Below are positions 43,460 to 50,052 of a stretch of DNA of 64,000 nucleotides, one piece after another (the stretch's first letter is position 1; each line of letters begins with the position of its first letter). Origin of the DNA: Ktedonobacteria bacterium brp13 (GTDB lineage Bacteria > Chloroflexota > Ktedonobacteria > Ktedonobacterales > Ktedonobacteraceae). The position numbers and the translations under genes were made by a program. The stretch spans positions 7,295,485-7,359,484 of the forward strand of contig AP024096.1 of assembly GCA_015099395.1 (NCBI GenBank). The letters run 5' to 3'. The notes beneath the pieces were generated by a model. The model saw nothing but the letters and a program-made list of their open reading frames with translations, was not told the DNA's origin and searched no databases.

Positions 43460-45010
43460 CTATTGTGTGGGCCACTTGAATCCGCGTTGTGACGGTCGTG
43501 GGCCCCCGGTTGAGCGAGGCTTTTTGATTTTTGCTCTGCGCTCTTCCGATGCTGAAGACTGGCGGCGGCGCGTTCTTCCCGCTGCTGAGCTCGGTCGGTT
43601 GGTTGGACGGAAAGGTGCTGTCTGTACGCTCTCTTCGTGCGTGACTGTTGGCGGAGGAACAATCTCTTTGGGCTTATCTTCGCGTTGTACCAGTTGATTG
43701 GTCTCGCTATTGACATCAGTCCAGAAACGAGCCTGTTTGCGCTGTTCAGGTCGTGAGCCTTTGATTACACGTCCATCGGGCAATGGTGTGACGTGGCGAT
43801 CATTCTGTTCCTGATATTCACGTGGTTTTCCATGTACGCGCTCGCCGTACTGCTGTGCGCTCTCACCATTTGCGCGTGGATGGAAGCGGTCGTTGCGCTC
43901 ATCACGATCGTTGCGACCCCCGAAGCGACTTCCACCACGTTCAGGACGACCCCCGAAGCGATTGCCACCACGTTCAGGACGACCTTCGAAGCGATTGCCA
44001 CCACGTTCAGGACGACCCCCGAAGCGATTGCCACCACGTTCAGGACGACCTTCGAAGCGATTGCCACCACGTTCAGGACGACCCTCGAAGCGATTGCCAC
44101 TGCGTTCAGGACGCCCCCCCTCCGGTGTGAACTGCTCATAATCGCCCTTGCGTTCAGGACGCCCCCCCTCCGGTGTGAACTGCTCATAATCGCCCTCGAA
44201 GCGTTGTGTCGGTCGAGGATTCGGTCGCGCATGTCGGTCGCTGTCAGGACGATAGGAAGGAGAGTACGGGCGACGATCTCCCTGCTGTGGTCGTGTATCC
44301 CGATTGTGAGGGCCATCGTTTGGGCGACGAGAATCGTTGTCACGTCTTTCAAAGCGTCCACCGCGCTGACCCTGATAGCCACCTTCACGACGATCATTGG
44401 TATCGGAGCGTCCGTAAGGCGAATAGGAAGGGCGCTCGTTGCGCTCACCGGCAGGGCGGGGGCGCTCATTACGGTCACCCGGGCGAGATGCACCATAGCC
44501 GCCACGTTGGTAGCCACCACTCTGGGGACCACGGCTATATGGGCGAGAAGGCTGCTCGTCTGTATTACGTGCTCCATACGGACGGTTATTTGGACGACCA
44601 CCATTAGCGGGGCGATCGTCACGTTGCTGCGCGCCAAAGTGTGAACGTGGTTGACGATCGTCCTGGTTCTGGCCGTAGCGCTGGAATGAGTTGCGACCAT
44701 GGATGGATGGTGGTCCCTGACGCTGTGAATTGTGCGAATCACGAGGTTGTGCGCCCTCTGATGTCTGATATGAATTTGGTTTGTTGCGCCAGTTATTACG
44801 AGGAGGCTGCCCTGACTGTCCGGTTGAACGAGGGTGATAGTCCGCGTGGGTGCGGTTGGCTCCATTTTCCCAAGCGCGATCTACAGTTTCTCGGTTGAGG
44901 CGAGGCCGAGCTGGGTGCGTCGATCGCTGTTCATCGAAGCGTCTGGTGGATGGGCTGCGGAACGATGAATGGTCGTCATTCCGTCTTTGATTATTGAATT
45001 GTCTGGTCAT
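43460..45010 (-). CDS. RG-rich disordered repeat protein
   Basis: 516 residues from ATG 45010 (MTRQFNNQRR), which follows GAAAGGAAAC. Almost the whole protein is predicted to be disordered: very high Arg, Gly, Asn, Asp, Pro, Gln, few hydrophobic residues. It carries many RGG/RPERGG-type elements, including six copies of an 11-residue unit (RPERGGNRFEG) and two of a 16-residue unit (DYEQFTPEGGRPER plus flank). The last ~60 residues (TRRRQSS ... KKPRSTGGPRPSQRGFKW) are strongly basic. RG-rich disordered proteins generally bind RNA and can phase-separate. No folded domain is recognised. It is a clear real gene: long, with consistent frame through the repeats and its own terminator. Confidence 0.75.
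   Translation of the reverse strand: MTRQFNNQRRNDDHSSFRSPSTRRFDEQRSTHPARPRLNRETVDRAWENGANRTHADYHPRSTGQSGQPPRNNWRNKPNSYQTSEGAQPRDSHNSQRQGPPSIHGRNSFQRYGQNQDDRQPRSHFGAQQRDDRPANGGRPNNRPYGARNTDEQPSRPYSRGPQSGGYQRGGYGASRPGDRNERPRPAGERNERPSYSPYGRSDTNDRREGGYQGQRGGRFERRDNDSRRPNDGPHNRDTRPQQGDRRPYSPSYRPDSDRHARPNPRPTQRFEGDYEQFTPEGGRPERKGDYEQFTPEGGRPERSGNRFEGRPERGGNRFEGRPERGGNRFGGRPERGGNRFEGRPERGGNRFGGRPERGGSRFGGRNDRDERNDRFHPRANGESAQQYGERVHGKPREYQEQNDRHVTPLPDGRVIKGSRPEQRKQARFWTDVNSETNQLVQREDKPKEIVPPPTVTHEESVQTAPFRPTNRPSSAAGRTRRRQSSASEERRAKIKKPRSTGGPRPSQRGFKWPTQ
43921..44118 (-). repeat. Six 33-bp tandem repeats in the RG-rich gene
   Basis: Units starting with CGAAGCGA at 43921, 43954, 43987, 44020, 44053 and 44086, each 33 bases (11 codons), nearly identical at the DNA level. 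Copy number could vary in frame. Confidence 0.9.
44103..44198 (-). repeat. Two 48-bp tandem repeats in the RG-rich gene
   Basis: CGTTCAGGACG units starting at 44103 and 44151, 48 bases (16 codons) apart and nearly identical. Confidence 0.85.
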
Positions 45011-45467
45011 GTTTCCTTTCACAGTTAAACCATATGGGGATGTAGTACTAGTAGTGGTCAGATCGGTAAGATCTTCCTTGATTTCCTCCCATCGGTCAAT
45101 CCGCACCTACTTAGTTGGTTTGTGTACTCGTTGTCAAACCATGGGGCAACTCGTAGGAGTTGCGACGATAACAGGTATTGTAACGGTATCGAAGATGCCT
45201 CTTCCTGTTCTTATTCGTCATCAGTGATAAGCGTGTGTTGTTGCGCGCAATACAACAGCACGTCTTTCCCGCAGCGCTGCATTGATCTGCATTAGCAAGC
45301 TTAACGCATTTGGTTTTGTTGATTTGTAAGGGGGCGCGTCCCTGATAGTATACCACAAGTTAAGTTACAGGGGCCACTTTATGCACTCCTGACTCATGTG
45401 TATGATGCGCTTGTGTGCCAGGATGCTCGACGATTCTCGCTCTATGTAGATTGCGCTTATTCTCTTA
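45011..45467. other. Leader region of the RG-rich gene up to the IS edge
   Basis: About 457 bases with no credible gene. It holds the minus-strand leader of the RG-rich gene, with a small perfect hairpin CAACTC/GAGTTG (45147-45162). Beyond about 45350 the sequence runs to the ISAzo13-like element and may be the original flank of speB. Confidence 0.5.
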
Positions 45468-45554
45468 GGGAAGCAAAAGAATTAAATCCTCCCAGATACC
45501 CCCTTGATTAGGAATGATAAACTAAAAAGTGAAAAAGGTTTGGGAGGATGGAAG

Positions 45555-46067
45555 ATGGAGTTAACGGAAGAAGTGAAAGAGTTGCTGATCAAGACCGCAA
45601 AAGAGCTCAAAGGGAGTGCATGTCGTCTTTTTATGGCACGGACGGTACGAGCATTGGGAAAAGGAGGGCAACGGCGGGCGGAAGAGGAGTTGGGTTGGAA
45701 TCGTGGACGCATCAGAAAAGGCGAGCATGAACTCAAAAGCGGGATGGTGTGTGTGGATGCGTTCAATCAACGGGGGAGAAAACGCAGCGAAGAGCATCTG
45801 CCGAATTTGCTGAAGGACATTACAGCCATCGTGGATGGGCAAAGCCAAGCTGATCCGCAGTTTCGCAGTGCTCGGCTGTATACCCGTCTGACCGCAGCAG
45901 AAGTCCGTCGCCAGTTGATCACGACCTACCACTACACGGATGCGGAATTACCAACGACAGCCACCATCACGACCAAGCTCAACGAACAGGGCTACACGCT
46001 CAAAAAGGTGGCGAAGACGCAACCCCAAAAAAACTCCCGGAAACCGATGCCATCTTCGATCACCTAA
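45555..46067 (+). CDS. ISAzo13-like transposase, upstream frame
   Basis: 170 residues from ATG 45555 with GGGAGG 7 bases upstream. It holds the N-terminal helical/DNA-binding part of the transposase (ELTEEVKELLIKTAKELKG; GWNRGRIRKGEHEL; SARLYTRLTAAEVRRQL), up to KKVAKTQPQK. After that the frame runs off into a non-conserved tail and stops at 46067. The continuation of the protein is in the -1 frame. A slip at 46028-46034 would give a 456-residue transposase. If the shift is not used, this short product alone would probably act as an inhibitor or be inert. Confidence 0.85.
   Translation: MELTEEVKELLIKTAKELKGSACRLFMARTVRALGKGGQRRAEEELGWNRGRIRKGEHELKSGMVCVDAFNQRGRKRSEEHLPNLLKDITAIVDGQSQADPQFRSARLYTRLTAAEVRRQLITTYHYTDAELPTTATITTKLNEQGYTLKKVAKTQPQKNSRKPMPSSIT
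46028..46034 (+). promoter_or_regulatory. Probable -1 programmed frameshift site
   Basis: The zero frame reads CAA AAA AAC, so bases 46028-46034 are A AAA AAC, the X-XXY-YYZ slippery heptamer used by many IS elements and viruses. A -1 slip here leads directly into the downstream transposase frame (next codons CTC CCG GAA). The seven-A run would also be a hot spot for a plain indel, so decay is the alternative. Confidence 0.6.
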
Positions 46068-46924
46068 AAGAGGTCAATGCGCAGGCCGATGCAGAAGCTT
46101 CAACTTTACGCATCTCGATGGATGCCAAGGCGGTGGTCAAAGTCGGTCCCTTCGCACGCGGAGGAAAAAACCGGGTCCTGGCCAAAGCGGCTGATCATGA
46201 TTTTGAGGCACAAGCCACCGTCACGCCAGTGGGCATTTTCCTTCCCGCTTTGGATGAGCTTTTTCTGTACGGCGTCACGTCCAAGGTCACCAGCGACTGC
46301 CTCGTTGATCGGCTGCTTCAGTGGTGGGAAAGCGTGAAAGAGCGTTTTGGTCAGATCAAGCTGCTCGTCATCAATTTGGATAATGGACCAGAGAATCACA
46401 GTCATCGTACTCAGTTTATGCAGCGTTTGCTCGAATTTACACAAACATATCAGATCACCGTCCGTTTGGCGTATTATCCGCCCTACCATAGTAAATACAA
46501 TGCGGTTGAACGCTGTTGGGGCATTTTGGAGCACCACTGGAATGGAGCCTTGCTCGACTCAGTGGATGCCATCATCCACTTTGCGCAAACGATGACCTGG
46601 AAAGGGAAGCATCCGGTTGTTGAATTGGTCACGAACGCCTATCAGACTGGGGTAAAGCTGACCAAAGAAGCCATGCAGGTGGTGGAAACCCACCTCCAGC
46701 GATGGCCTTCCTTAGAAAAATGGTGCGTCGATATTCCCTCTTCTCTACCAATAGCGCCGCAATCTCATCCGTTCGTGCAAGAGAAGTCAACGTCTCAGAA
46801 GCGGCAAAGAGGACGTCCTCGCACAAGGCCGCTTCCTGATCCAACTCAGCCAAAACGGCCACGAGGTCGTCCTCGTAAGCCTGTTCTGGCTGAGAGTGTC
46901 ACACCACTATCGACCCCGAGTTAG
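46034..46924 (+). CDS. ISAzo13-like transposase, downstream frame (DDE catalytic part)
   Basis: Reading from the frameshift point, 296 codons follow: LPETDAIFDHLKEVNAQADAE, then the catalytic domain (parts). All three DDE residues are present: Asp in RISMDAKAVVKVG, Asp in VINLDNGPEN, and Glu in NAVERCWGILEHHWNG. ATG 46118 would be an internal start giving 268 residues. The C-terminus has two AT-hook-like motifs (RGRPRTR, RGRPRKP) followed by a Pro-rich tail. Catalytic residues and both element ends look intact, so the element may be active if the frameshift is functional. Confidence 0.85.
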   Translation, partial: LPETDAIFDHLKEVNAQADAEASTLRISMDAKAVVKVGPFARGGKNRVLAKAADHDFEAQATVTPVGIFLPALDELFLYGVTSKVTSDCLVDRLLQWWESVKERFGQIKLLVINLDNGPENHSHRTQFMQRLLEFTQTYQITVRLAYYPPYHSKYNAVERCWGILEHHWNGALLDSVDAIIHFAQTMTWKGKHPVVELVTNAYQTGVKLTKEAMQVVETHLQRWPSLEKWCVDIPSSLPIAPQSHPFVQEKSTSQKRQRGRPRTRPLPDPTQPKRPRGRPRKPVLAESVTPLSTPS

Positions 46925-46971: not shown

Positions 46972-47856
46972 TTACTGCTTTGTGCACAGGCGGTAACCAA
47001 TCATTTTGTAGACTAACTTTGCAGCCAGGAAGTCGGCCCTCGTCTGGCCTGGCATTGGACAGAGTTCAACGACATCCATACCGACGATGGTCGTTCGGCG
47101 ATTGATCTCACGTAAGATATCTAATACCTGATACCAGTGGAGTCCTCCTGGTTCCGGTGTCCCTACTGCAGGCATCTCGCCAGGATCGAATGCATCAAGA
47201 TCGACGGTGACATAGGTATGAGCACCAAGACGTTCCCATGGGATTTTGGCCGTTCCGCGTGCCATCTCATAGGCCCAGACGATAGCGACATCAGGTTTGG
47301 TACGTAGAAAAGCGGCTTCTTCTGGACTGAAGCTGCGGATACCGATCTCTAGCAGTGGGATATGCATATCAACGACTCTGCGCTCGATAGAGGCGTGTGA
47401 GAGTGGCGTTCCCTCATATTCATCACGCAGGTCACCGTGAGCATCAATATGGATCACTGTCACGTCTGGATAGTGCTCGTGTACCGCTGCGATGACCGGA
47501 GCGGATAGCGAATGCTCACCGCCCAATGTGAGAGGTAACTGACCCTGTTGCAATGCATGTCGGATAGCGTCGCCTGTGACCCGGAGTGCTGCTGCATGGT
47601 CCAGACCTTCATAATCGAGTAGCGGATACGTATAGACGCCCATTTCGATGGGACAGCAATCCAACTCCTCATCGTAGAGCTCCATCTGACTGGAGGCGTC
47701 AAGGATTGCCTGCGGACCATAATGGGTCCCCTTCATATAGCAGACACTGTATTCCAGGGGAGCAGGAATGATAGCTATCTTTGCTGTGGTGGGATCACAA
47801 TAGGGAGCGTCAGGAGCGCCAAATTGAGTGATAGCCTTCTGTTCCTCATCTTGCAT
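46972..47856 (-). CDS. speB: Agmatinase / ureohydrolase
   Basis: 294 residues of the ureohydrolase (arginase/agmatinase) family. The two-manganese site is complete: GGEHS, DAHGDLRDEY (usual DAHxDxxD), and DLDAFDP. SpeB splits agmatine into putrescine and urea. The fit to agmatinase over arginase rests on context (speD and DHS-like genes follow) and on the length. The stop codon TAA (46972-46974, complement of TTA) is also the target duplication of the IS element, so the protein is intact but its original downstream sequence is now 1.5 kb away. It lies upstream of nothing else on this strand and downstream of speD. Confidence 0.88.
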   Translation of the reverse strand: MQDEEQKAITQFGAPDAPYCDPTTAKIAIIPAPLEYSVCYMKGTHYGPQAILDASSQMELYDEELDCCPIEMGVYTYPLLDYEGLDHAAALRVTGDAIRHALQQGQLPLTLGGEHSLSAPVIAAVHEHYPDVTVIHIDAHGDLRDEYEGTPLSHASIERRVVDMHIPLLEIGIRSFSPEEAAFLRTKPDVAIVWAYEMARGTAKIPWERLGAHTYVTVDLDAFDPGEMPAVGTPEPGGLHWYQVLDILREINRRTTIVGMDVVELCPMPGQTRADFLAAKLVYKMIGYRLCTKQ

Positions 47857-48011
47857 GACGTGTGTTCCTCTTTATATATGATATATGTAATGATGTTGTG
47901 TACCTGTACAGCCATAACAGTGCGGAGAGCCTGTTTTTGCTGGAGAGCGGAGGCTCTGTTGAAACGAGAAGCCTTCTATAGAAAGTATACCGTATAATTT
48001 TCCACTTAACA

Positions 48012-48060
48012 AGAAGAGAGTGGGTGCTGAGCCAATCTGGTAAGCACCATACTCTCTTCT
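48012..48060. terminator. Terminator-like hairpin between speD and speB
   Basis: AGAAGAGAGT (48012-48021) pairs with ACTCTCTTCT (48051-48060), with GGTGCT (48023-48028) pairing AGCACC (48043-48048) inside. On the minus strand it follows the speD stop by 88 bases and is followed by TTGTT. So speB probably has its own promoter or partial read-through. Confidence 0.6.
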
Positions 48061-48147
48061 CAGGTTTGTTCGCTAGTGGGCGCTGCGAATGTACAGGGGA
48101 GACCGAGGTTACAAGGTAGTGTACATTTCGCTTTTCTCTTATTGCCC

Positions 48148-48582
48148 TTAGCGCACCCCCAGTTTCGCTAGACGGCGAGCTTCCATTGCCTGCTCCAGCA
48201 GGACTGGATCTGGCTCTTCTGGGCGCAGCGAGCGGGTAGCACGAACGACAAAATGGGCTTCAACGTCATCTGTATTGAACGTTTCTTTACAGAACGCGAT
48301 AGCATCTTCCTGGCTGAACTCTTTGCACGAGCAGATATCGATGTCAACTTCTCCGTATTCAGGCCAGGCATGTAAACTGACATGACTCTGAGCAATAACT
48401 ACAAAACCTGACATACCAGCGTCGAGTGGATTAGATGTTTCAATGTCGTATAGATGGATGGGGCTGACCTTCTCCATTGCGACACGCTCAGGCAACTCGC
48501 TCAATGTGCGGCGCAAAAGAGCCTCATTTGCCAGGGTCGTCCGATCGATATTGTAGAGTTCTAGCATCAGATGAACCAGCAT
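48148..48582 (-). CDS. speD: SpeD homologue (AdoMet decarboxylase family), altered processing site
   Basis: 144 residues, close to class 1b bacterial SpeD. These enzymes are made as proenzymes that cut themselves between Glu and Ser to create a pyruvoyl cofactor. Here the site reads VVIAQSHVSLHAWPEYG: Ser66 is kept but Gln65 replaces the usual Glu (ESH). The processing His (His71 in LHAWPE) and the active-site Cys (Cys86 in ICSCKEF, usual FTCG) are kept, while GYAAID is GEVDID. SpeD normally makes the aminopropyl donor for spermidine synthase, which is not seen here. Some SpeD relatives, including from Chloroflexota, have become pyruvoyl arginine or ornithine decarboxylases; agmatinase next door makes arginine decarboxylase attractive. 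The symbol refers to family only. Confidence 0.8.
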   Translation of the reverse strand: MLVHLMLELYNIDRTTLANEALLRRTLSELPERVAMEKVSPIHLYDIETSNPLDAGMSGFVVIAQSHVSLHAWPEYGEVDIDICSCKEFSQEDAIAFCKETFNTDDVEAHFVVRATRSLRPEEPDPVLLEQAMEARRLAKLGVR

Positions 48583-48912
48583 CGCAAATCCTCCTAATAT
48601 GTTCTCTTTGTGCAGGTTTTAGCGCTTATGAAAAGGGCGCATCCTGCAATTTCATGGTGCGCTAAACAACATGCACACTGGTTGTAATTATACATTAGGT
48701 TGTCAAGCTAATGCCCATAAGCGTATGTTATTTTAACCTAATGACTAGTCTCATTCCACCTAATAGCAACCAGACGCTCCATCTAAATGGCATTTTGTTG
48801 TCTACCTAATGGCTAGGTCGAGCTCTATCTAATTGGGAATAGTGCTGCGCATTAGGTAGAACACTAGCCCTACTCCTGAGCAGGAGCAGGGCCGAGTATT
48901 GGACTATAGGCG
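48583..48912. other. Intergenic region between DHS-like and speD genes with repeated ACCTAATG motifs
   Basis: 330 bases upstream of speD and downstream of the DHS-like gene. It carries several copies of a short motif (next entry). No terminator of the DHS-like gene or conventional promoter was recognised with confidence. Confidence 0.5.
48693..48857. repeat. Cluster of ACCTAATG-type repeats
   Basis: ACCTAATG or close variants at 48736-48743, 48758-48765 (ACCTAATA), 48804-48811, with ATCTAAAT at 48781 and ATCTAATT at 48827-48834; the reverse form CATTAGGT at 48693-48700 and 48850-48857. Two copies continue as GACTAG or GGCTAG. Seven related sites in 165 bases look like a binding array for a regulator of speD, but they could be remnant repeats. 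Confidence 0.5.
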
Positions 48913-50052
48913 CTATGGACGGGCTTGCTTGCCCGTTTCATATGCCTCTTTGAGCTCTTTGAGCATGCTTTCACGTTTACTGAATAGTTCGCGGCGTGGT
49001 CTTGGCTGAGCCTTACTGACGGCGTACGCAGTAATGAGAGGTAAAGCTATAGTAGAATCTCCATATACTACGACGGCGTCGCGTAGCTGATCTGGTTTGA
49101 TCTTGCCCCATGAAACGGCTTCAGAGGGCGTTGCACCTGAGAGACCGCCCCAATGGGGTGCATCAGTAGTAATCTGAAGAAAGTAGTCGTGTCCTCCTTT
49201 TTGAATACCGAGTACTTCCCATAATTGTGGTTGCGTCTGTAGATAGAAGTTTTTAGGACTGCCACCGCCCAGGATAATGACGCCGTTGCGTGTCGCGTGA
49301 TGGACGATCGCCGTGGTCTCATTGACATCTGCCAGTGGATCGAGTGTCAATTGATTGCCATCGAGAGCATGACGTGCGACGTTCATACCGATGGAGGAGT
49401 CGCCTGGAGACGATGTATAGATCGGTACATTCCACGCAGCGGCTTGTGCCAGTACCGAGTACTCTGGCTTGACACCGGCTTTGAGCAACTGGGTCCCCAG
49501 ATGATGGTGAAGCTCAGAAGTGGCAATAGGACGGTTTGGCAGCGTCTTCAAGCATTCACGCACGAAGGCATCGGTATCTAATAGGACTTTATCGTCGAAG
49601 AGGATGTCATAAATGCGAATGACACCTTCTTCTTGTAGTTGAATATCATCTAGACGGAAGTCGCCACGATGCAATGTCATCGCTAACGCATGATGCATAT
49701 CGTGATAAAGGTTTGCACCAGTGCTGATGATGAAATCGACAAAGCCATATTCCATAAGTGTCAGTATACAGCCACCTAATCCGGCTGGTGTTAGTGCGCC
49801 AGCCATTGTCAGGCCAACGGTCACATCCTGTTCCGGATCCAGCATACGCTCTGTGTAGAGGCGTGCAGCCTCACTCATGCGGGCTGCGTTATACGCCTGG
49901 AACTGCTGATCGATGAGCTCTGTAACGGTCATATTTGGCGTGACCCGGGTCGGCAGGATCTTCGGCCCGCTTAAGAGTGTGTCATGCACTGACTGCTGCT
50001 CTTCATGGTGGTCGTTGTGATGTCCATTGGGATGATCATGATGCTGTGTCAA
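48913..50052 (-). CDS. Deoxyhypusine-synthase-like protein
   Basis: 379 residues. The DHS family transfers the butylamine part of spermidine, via an enzyme-lysine imine; the catalytic lysine motif is intact in SGATPSEAVSWGKIKPD. Other family motifs: TMAGALTPAGLGG, FIISTGANLYHD, NVPIYTSSPGDSSIG, VIILGGGSPKNF. The start is TTG 50052 with GAGAGGA upstream. The first ~25 residues are His-rich (HHDHPNGHHNDHHEE), an unusual possible metal-binding tail. Bacteria lack eIF5A, so bacterial DHS homologues are thought to make homospermidine or related polyamines instead. Its place by speD and speB supports a polyamine role. Confidence 0.85.
   Translation of the reverse strand: MTQHHDHPNGHHNDHHEEQQSVHDTLLSGPKILPTRVTPNMTVTELIDQQFQAYNAARMSEAARLYTERMLDPEQDVTVGLTMAGALTPAGLGGCILTLMEYGFVDFIISTGANLYHDMHHALAMTLHRGDFRLDDIQLQEEGVIRIYDILFDDKVLLDTDAFVRECLKTLPNRPIATSELHHHLGTQLLKAGVKPEYSVLAQAAAWNVPIYTSSPGDSSIGMNVARHALDGNQLTLDPLADVNETTAIVHHATRNGVIILGGGSPKNFYLQTQPQLWEVLGIQKGGHDYFLQITTDAPHWGGLSGATPSEAVSWGKIKPDQLRDAVVVYGDSTIALPLITAYAVSKAQPRPRRELFSKRESMLKELKEAYETGKQARP

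What the first reader, a model, noticed from the sequence alone, without database searches (positions are those of the whole stretch)
46972..50052. Possible arginine-to-polyamine module: SpeD homologue with altered cleavage site, agmatinase and a DHS-like enzyme
Seen: the SpeD homologue has Gln65-Ser66 instead of Glu-Ser and lost GYAA after the active-site region; speB and a deoxyhypusine-synthase-like gene flank it; no spermidine synthase is seen in the window. Known: some SpeD homologues have become pyruvoyl arginine or ornithine decarboxylases in several phyla, including Chloroflexota; bacterial DHS homologues can make homospermidine-type polyamines. Inference: arginine to agmatine (SpeD-like), to putrescine (SpeB), to a longer polyamine (DHS-like).
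Basis: partly seen in the sequence, partly recalled or inferred. Interest (0 to 1): 0.65.

Follow-up and report, generated by a model that had tools for sequence, protein, structure and literature searches.

The report
Arginine-to-homospermidine gene trio in Ktedonobacteria
Three neighbouring genes of a soil bacterium most likely turn arginine into the polyamine homospermidine, using a SpeD enzyme that has switched from S-adenosylmethionine to arginine; this trio is already known from other phyla, but here its decarboxylase gene has a private repeat-array control region, and in sister families the same kind of enzyme is fused to a catalytically dead deoxyhypusine-synthase domain.

Summary
On the minus strand lie speY (48913-50052), a SpeD homologue (48148-48582) and speB (46972-47856), in a Dictyobacter-like Ktedonobacterales genome of 8.88 Mb. 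That genome has one SpeD, no orthodox spermidine synthase, no classical or archaeal arginine decarboxylase, no AAT-fold decarboxylase and no agmatine deiminase. The best reading is SpeDA (arginine to agmatine), SpeB (to putrescine), SpeY (to homospermidine). Li et al. 2023 (PMC10407285) assayed SpeDA proteins from the same speDA-speB-speY clusters in other phyla, so this is a new member of a known kind. I found no paper naming it in Ktedonobacteria. Better clues are loss of the AdoMetDC Phe and Pro before GVSG, CSCK instead of FTCG, and genome context. Thermogemmatispora makes the same point: it lost speY and gained a second speD plus speE, yet keeps this SpeD and a SpeB. Two by-products look new. 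First, a roughly 23-bp-phased repeat array upstream of speD: in all 17 family genomes with exact hits, every hit lies in this gap. Second, sister families carry SpeD fused to a deoxyhypusine-synthase domain lacking its catalytic motif. No activity was tested.

The parts
48913..50052 (-). speY: deoxyhypusine-synthase-like homospermidine synthase, 379 aa, TTG start; catalytic Lys317 in SWGK kept, GGGSPKN in place of the DHS GGGxxKHH
   Evidence: (NF001980 518 bits, cut-off 450; NF002699 caldomycin-synthase model 178 bits, cut-off 500)
48733..48832 (-). array of five TTAGRTNGA-type repeats (one mismatch allowed) spaced 22-23 bp in the speY-speD gap; probable operator array
   Evidence: chain of 5; 300 shuffles give at most 1; phased pair pattern only here in 8.88 Mb, reversed-pattern control 0; 17 of 29 family genomes, all hits in the speY-speD gap
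48687..48713 (-). 21-bp palindrome CATTAGCTTGACAACCTAATG (48693-48713) abutting a TATAAT hexamer (48687-48692), conserved in relatives: probable promoter/operator of speD
48148..48582 (-). speD homologue, candidate pyruvoyl L-arginine decarboxylase (SpeDA), 144 aa
48385..48390 (-). predicted self-cleavage site Gln65-Ser66 (Ser66 becomes the pyruvoyl group)
46972..47856 (-). speB: agmatinase, 294 aa, with the metal-ligand motifs GGEHS, DAHGD and DLDAFDP

Best explanation
The three genes encode a complete AdoMet-free route from arginine to homospermidine. The SpeD homologue is a SpeDA: it cuts itself at Gln65-Ser66, turns Ser66 into a pyruvoyl group and uses it to decarboxylate L-arginine to agmatine. 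SpeB removes urea from agmatine to give putrescine. SpeY, an NAD-dependent deoxyhypusine-synthase relative with the catalytic lysine kept, transfers an aminobutyl group from one putrescine to another to give sym-homospermidine. speD has its own promoter behind a phased repeat array that probably binds a dedicated regulator. Shown here: genes, motifs, synteny, selection, genome-wide absences, array. Inferred: every catalytic activity, the product and the regulator.
For: Gene identities. Ser/His/Cys kept, while the Phe and Pro of canonical FxPxGVSG are replaced by Pro52 and Asp54, which the E-S-type candidate SpeDA proteins of other Chloroflexota share, and FTCG becomes CSCK. The protein falls outside the clade of canonical SpeD (100% support) and below the TIGR03330 cut-off (63.7 against 75.65). 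The genome has no other SpeD and no SpeA/SpeC/PvlArgDC/AguA/orthodox SpeE. Order speY-speD-speB is conserved in Dictyobacter, Tengunoibacter, Ktedonobacter, Ktedonospora, Ktedonosporobacter and MAGs. Thermogemmatispora lacks any DHS homologue but has a second SpeD (over TIGR03330) beside an aminopropyltransferase over its curated cut-off, and still keeps this SpeD and a SpeB ortholog, so this SpeD is not its AdoMet decarboxylase. speD-speY-speB also cluster in other Chloroflexota. In PMC10407285 the assayed anomalous SpeDs associated with SpeB or AguAB routes in their Table 2 were arginine decarboxylases.
Against: No activity, cleavage or polyamine was measured. Genome completeness is estimated at 92%, so a missing gene cannot be fully excluded. 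A fused MFS/SpdSyn protein of unknown activity exists, and an arginase could feed an ornithine route. The proline distinguishing SpeDA in PMC10407285 could not be located exactly from its text. No sequence of an assayed bacterial SpeDA could be fetched for direct comparison. The AlphaFold model was too poor to examine the pocket (mean pLDDT 50).
Confidence: 0.83

Rival explanations
1. The SpeD homologue is an L-ornithine decarboxylase (SpeDC): arginase makes ornithine, SpeDC makes putrescine directly, SpeY makes homospermidine, and SpeB does something else or salvages agmatine.
For: An arginase over its curated cut-off is in the genome. The only Chloroflexota SpeD homologue assayed so far, from Anaerolinea thermophila, was an ornithine decarboxylase (PMC10407285). 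The SpeDC marker residues include a Gln whose exact place is not given in the text.
Against: SpeB sits in the same conserved cluster, and in PMC10407285 the presence of an agmatine-to-putrescine route was the working rule for arginine decarboxylases, while SpeDC genes mostly came from genomes without such a cluster. Between residues 50 and 97 the window protein has no Thr, one of the four SpeDC markers.
Confidence: 0.09
2. It is a divergent but genuine AdoMet decarboxylase that supplies an unrecognised aminopropyltransferase such as the fused MFS/SpdSyn protein.
For: Family membership in AdoMet_dc and TIGR03330 similarity (63.7 bits); Spermine_synth-domain proteins exist in the genome.
Against: It would leave the genome without any enzyme to make agmatine or putrescine although agmatinase is next door. 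Thermogemmatispora keeps it beside a separate AdoMetDC-type SpeD with SpeE. Canonical Phe and Pro before GVSG are lost, and the two SpdSyn-domain proteins score far below SpeE cut-offs.
Confidence: 0.05
3. SpeY couples two agmatines to caldomycin (bis-guanidino-azanonane) and SpeB then removes both guanidino groups, so the route runs agmatine, caldomycin, homospermidine without free putrescine, as in Thermus.
For: CdmS of T. thermophilus is a DHS homologue working with a ureohydrolase (PMC10981699). The same three gene families would suffice.
Against: SpeY scores 518 bits for the homospermidine-biosynthesis model and 178 for the caldomycin-synthase model (cut-off 500). SpeB is over the agmatinase cut-off.
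Confidence: 0.12

Closest known systems
speDA-speB-speY homospermidine clusters (Ca. Marinimicrobia, Solirubrobacter sp., Capsulimonas corticalis, Ca. Poseidonales, Ca. Woesearchaeota; Li et al. 2023, PMC10407285)
   Same: Same three gene families in one cluster, same absence of spermidine synthase and classical ADC/ODC, same inferred pathway; SpeDA activity on arginine was measured there.
   Different: Ktedonobacteria are not named there; Gln-Ser instead of Glu-Ser; SpeY is of the NF001980 type whereas the Chloroflexota E-S-type clusters sampled here (L070, L073) use NF002006-like DHS homologues; separate speD promoter with a phased repeat array; intergenic gaps of about 290-330 bp.
SpeY of Anabaena (DHS-like homospermidine synthase; Burnat et al. 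2018, known here only as cited in PMC10407285)
   Same: NF001980/PRK00770 family hit over the curated cut-off and catalytic Lys kept. That the Anabaena protein belongs to this model family is from memory.
   Different: Putrescine is supplied by a SpeD-derived decarboxylase here.
Caldomycin synthase CdmS plus TtSpeBap of Thermus thermophilus (PMC10981699)
   Same: A DHS homologue and a ureohydrolase together give homospermidine.
   Different: The window SpeY fails the caldomycin-synthase model; the decarboxylase is SpeD-derived.
SpeDC pyruvoyl ornithine decarboxylases (Anaerolinea thermophila, phages; PMC10407285, PMC9992855)
   Same: Neofunctionalised SpeD with a pyruvoyl group; a pelagiphage relative (HTVC103P) shares the SCK motif.
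   Different: SpeB is clustered here; the SpeDC Thr marker appears absent.
Trypanosomatid DHS with a catalytically dead paralogue, and AdoMetDC with its dead prozyme (PMC3663545, PMC5201418)
   Same: A dead DHS-like domain tied to polyamine synthesis, as in the SpeD-DHS fusions of sister Ktedonobacterales families.
   Different: In Ktedonobacterales the dead DHS domain is fused to a SpeD homologue in one chain; the window genome itself has no such fusion.

Membership tests
SpeDA (AdoMetDC-derived arginine decarboxylase) | Class 1b SpeD homologue with Ser, His and Cys of self-processing and catalysis | tested here: met
   S66, H71, C86 align with T. maritima S63, H68, C83; invariant in 20 relatives
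SpeDA (AdoMetDC-derived arginine decarboxylase) | SpeD homologue without an orthodox SpeE, SpeA or SpeC in the genome, with SpeB or AguAB present | tested here: met
   caveats: 92% estimated completeness, one MFS/SpdSyn protein and one LysA-like decarboxylase below cut-offs
SpeDA (AdoMetDC-derived arginine decarboxylase) | Loss of the Pro that is fully conserved in bona fide AdoMetDC | tested here: inconclusive
   Pro of FxPxGVSG is replaced by Asp54, but the paper marks its Pro only in a figure; the other Pro (WPE) is kept
SpeDA (AdoMetDC-derived arginine decarboxylase) | Decarboxylates arginine and not AdoMet, ornithine or lysine | not testable with these tools
   needs purified protein
SpeDC (AdoMetDC-derived ornithine decarboxylase) | Four diagnostic residues Gln, Thr, Phe, Tyr in the central region | tested here: inconclusive
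   positions not given in the text; no Thr between residues 50 and 97 of the window protein
Bona fide AdoMet decarboxylase | TIGR03330 curated cut-off and FxPxGVSG...ESH...FTCG signature | tested here: not met
   63.7 bits against 75.65; Q-S, Pro52/Asp54, CSCK. The cut-off alone does not discriminate: L070, an E-S-type candidate SpeDA, scores 77.1
SpeY (DHS-like homospermidine synthase) | NF001980 curated cut-off; catalytic Lys in SWGK | tested here: met
   518 bits, cut-off 450; Lys317
SpeY (DHS-like homospermidine synthase) | Makes homospermidine from putrescine | not testable with these tools
   needs assay
Caldomycin synthase CdmS | NF002699 curated cut-off | tested here: not met
   178 bits, cut-off 500
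Agmatinase SpeB | TIGR01230 curated cut-off and arginase-family metal-ligand motifs | tested here: met
   218 bits, cut-off 174; GGEHS, DAHGD, DLDAFDP

The most novel reading that the evidence does not exclude
In Ktedonobacterales the SpeD-derived decarboxylase is controlled by a deoxyhypusine-synthase-derived partner: in sister families a catalytically dead DHS domain is fused to it and acts as an allosteric or scaffolding unit (a bacterial counterpart of the trypanosome prozyme system), and in the window's family the standalone enzyme is instead controlled through a dedicated, polyamine-responsive array of phased operators found nowhere else in the genome.
Probability: 0.15. Interest if true: 0.65.

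Novelty: new member of a known kind. Interest (0 to 1): 0.42.

Why it matters
It extends the speDA-speB-speY route to Ktedonobacteria, in cultured genera (Dictyobacter, Ktedonobacter, Tengunoibacter) where it can be tested directly, and it predicts homospermidine as their main triamine. Public annotation would call the gene AdoMet decarboxylase, which is probably wrong. The lineage also offers a natural experiment: Thermogemmatispora swapped SpeY for a SpeD/SpeE pair yet kept the candidate arginine decarboxylase. The private phased repeat array and the fusions to a dead DHS domain are concrete openings on how bacteria control polyamine synthesis.

Tried and rejected
AlphaFold of the SpeD from 20 close relatives gave mean pLDDT 49.7, so no pocket comparison or fold search was made. 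Rfam on the locus gave only a spurious RNase P fragment, so no known riboswitch; the speD leader was read but not tested for covariation. The consensus promoter scan found no more than shuffles; the promoter claim rests on cross-genus conservation only. The Gln-Ser dipeptide as a marker of changed substrate was rejected after finding E-S, T-S and D-S in related homologues. The AR-fold decarboxylase hit (L004) was considered as a classical ADC and rejected: best model is lysA at 117 bits (cut-off 298), speA 38 (cut-off 624), next to a cysteine-synthase-like gene. A search for papers on Ktedonobacter with homospermidine found none; a wider polyamine search was uninformative.
Full report
What is there. 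Three ORFs lie head to tail on the minus strand: speY 48913-50052 (379 aa, TTG start), the SpeD homologue 48148-48582 (144 aa) and speB 46972-47856 (294 aa), with gaps of 330 and 291 bp. Curated models give agmatinase (218 bits, cut-off 174), homospermidine biosynthesis protein NF001980 (518 bits, cut-off 450) and, for SpeD, AdoMet_dc in Pfam but only 63.7 bits against the 75.65 cut-off of the AdoMet decarboxylase equivalog. The window lies in an 8.88-Mb single-contig genome. Its nearest named relatives at the speD locus are Dictyobacter species (93% identity).

Motifs. Aligned to T. maritima AdoMetDC, the self-processing Ser, His and Cys are kept (Ser66, His71, Cys86), and the residue before Ser is Gln65. 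The stretch FxPxGVSG of canonical SpeD reads NPLDAGMSG here, so the Phe and Pro become Pro52 and Asp54. The E-S-type candidate SpeDA proteins of other Chloroflexota have the same Pro and Asp at these places, and an insertion just before them. FTCG becomes CSCK; those proteins have FSCK. Gln65 itself is a weak clue: a homologue 69% identical on a viral contig (L169) has Glu-Ser, and pelagiphage HTVC103P and rhizobiophage phiN3 have Thr-Ser and Asp-Ser. 'Loss of GYAA' is a substitution (GEVD), not a deletion.

Only one SpeD is present. The Spermine_synth family finds two membrane proteins, one of them a fused MFS/SpdSyn; both score far below the speE models. The AR-fold decarboxylase family finds one protein that is LysA-like and far from SpeA. 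There is no AAT-fold decarboxylase, no archaeal pyruvoyl ADC and no agmatine deiminase. There are two arginase-family proteins: the agmatinase of the window and an arginase. There is one DHS homologue, the window SpeY. An AdoMet decarboxylase without an orthodox spermidine synthase, next to an agmatinase without any agmatine source, makes no metabolic sense; an arginine decarboxylase does.

Conservation. The order speY-speD-speB is kept in Dictyobacter, Tengunoibacter, Ktedonospora, Ktedonosporobacter, Ktedonobacter and several MAGs, and Q65 is invariant in the 20 aligned Ktedonobacteria. Synonymous sites are saturated while dN is 0.06-0.18 between the window and Dictyobacter or Tengunoibacter. 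Other Chloroflexota families have speD-speY-speB or speD-speB clusters with E-S-type SpeD (L070, L073, L113, L118, L071, L075), sometimes beside a canonical speD. In a tree the canonical SpeDs form one clade (100%), and the Q-S group (99%) and the E-S SpeDA-like proteins fall outside it. The tree is short of columns, and some long branches meet.

A natural control. Thermogemmatispora and Thermosporothrix genomes have no DHS homologue. Complete Thermogemmatispora G068 keeps the Q-S SpeD at the same place beside uvrB (identified from its sequence) and a SpeB ortholog (67% identity) elsewhere. It also has a second SpeD over the AdoMetDC cut-off next to an aminopropyltransferase over its cut-off. 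The Q-S SpeD is therefore kept in the presence of an AdoMetDC-type SpeD, as expected of an arginine decarboxylase.

Prior knowledge. Li et al. 2023 (PMC10407285) found SpeD homologues in genomes without SpeE, in clusters with speB and speY, and measured arginine decarboxylase activity for proteins from Marinimicrobia, Solirubrobacter, Capsulimonas and others. They named them SpeDA and noted that most sit with speY for homospermidine. The Chloroflexota protein they assayed was an ornithine decarboxylase from Anaerolinea. The window trio is therefore a new member of their kind, in a class not named in that paper. The Thermus caldomycin route (PMC10981699) uses a DHS homologue on agmatine; the window SpeY scores 178 bits on that model (cut-off 500), so it is a rival, not the first choice.

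Beyond the finding: a private control region. Upstream of speD, on the coding strand, five TTAGRTNGA-type repeats lie at -250, -227, -204, -181 and -159 from the start codon. They are followed by the 21-bp palindrome CATTAGCTTGACAACCTAATG abutting TATAAT. Dinucleotide shuffles of the region give chains of at most 1, against 5 observed. The exact phased-pair pattern occurs in the 8.88-Mb genome only here, with 0 hits for the reversed pattern. In 17 of 29 family genomes it has exact hits, and by coordinates every hit lies in the gap upstream of speD (one search compared). It is absent upstream of speD in Thermogemmatispora, which lost speY. The repeats are alike but the DNA between them is not, which suits an array of protein-binding sites better than a minisatellite. 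The regulator is unknown.

Beyond the finding: SpeD-DHS fusions. In the three other Ktedonobacterales families sampled, the only SpeD matches listed are single ORFs of 470-619 aa with an E-S-type SpeD domain and a DHS-like domain, including a complete genome (G092, L058). The DHS half lacks the SGATPSEAVSWGK stretch with the catalytic lysine, and the GGG-PKN motif. It evolves faster than the SpeD half but still under constraint: dN/dS about 0.17-0.35 against 0.03-0.11, with some dS values near saturation. Most of these genomes also carry an intact standalone SpeY. A dead DHS-like domain tied to a polyamine decarboxylase recalls the trypanosomatid dead paralogues (PMC3663545, PMC5201418; titles and abstracts only). 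I found no description of such a fusion in the papers searched.

Verdict. Observation confirmed; interpretation supported at gene and genome level; activities inferred. New member of a known kind, with two side observations that deserve experiments.

Noticed in passing
window 48687-48832 (-) and the speY-speD gaps of L007-L021: About 23-bp-phased TTAGRTNGA repeat array plus a 21-bp palindrome abutting TATAAT upstream of speD; exact hits only in this gap in 17 of 29 family genomes.
   Followed up: yes
L057-L061, L120-L126 (sister Ktedonobacterales families): SpeD homologue fused to a DHS-like domain that has lost the catalytic-lysine motif, in genomes that mostly also carry an intact standalone SpeY.
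   Followed up: partly
L169:4001-4399 (IMGVR_UViG_3300036818_000127, 109 kb viral contig): Phage-borne SpeD 69% identical to the window protein, with Glu-Ser instead of Gln-Ser at the cleavage site; neither speY nor speB in the 8.4 kb held.
   Followed up: partly
L130 (Microcystis phage MaAM05, MW495066.1): Phage gene row: canonical speD, SpeDA-like speD, speE, speB, a possible phage-encoded arginine-to-spermidine route.
   Followed up: no
L062:2876-4399 (Chloroflexota family f69): Branched-chain polyamine synthase (BpsA_C) domain fused to an AdoMet_dc domain in one ORF.
   Followed up: no
L063:2830-4360 (Thermogemmatispora): A divergent AdoMetDC-type SpeD next to an aminopropyltransferase over its curated cut-off, in a genome that lost speY but keeps the Q-S SpeD.
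   Followed up: yes
L007 about 9430, L009 about 10787, L016 about 9630: speB is broken by a frame change at three different places in Dictyobacter kobayashii, D. vulcani and Ktedonosporobacter rubrisoli; sequencing error or real decay was not resolved.
   Followed up: partly
window 45504-46924 (+): An ISAZ013-type transposase split over two ORFs lies immediately downstream of speB.
   Followed up: no
window 43460-45106 (-): 548-aa Arg/Gly/Asn-rich repetitive ORF (RPERGGNRFEG repeats) without any Pfam match.
   Followed up: no
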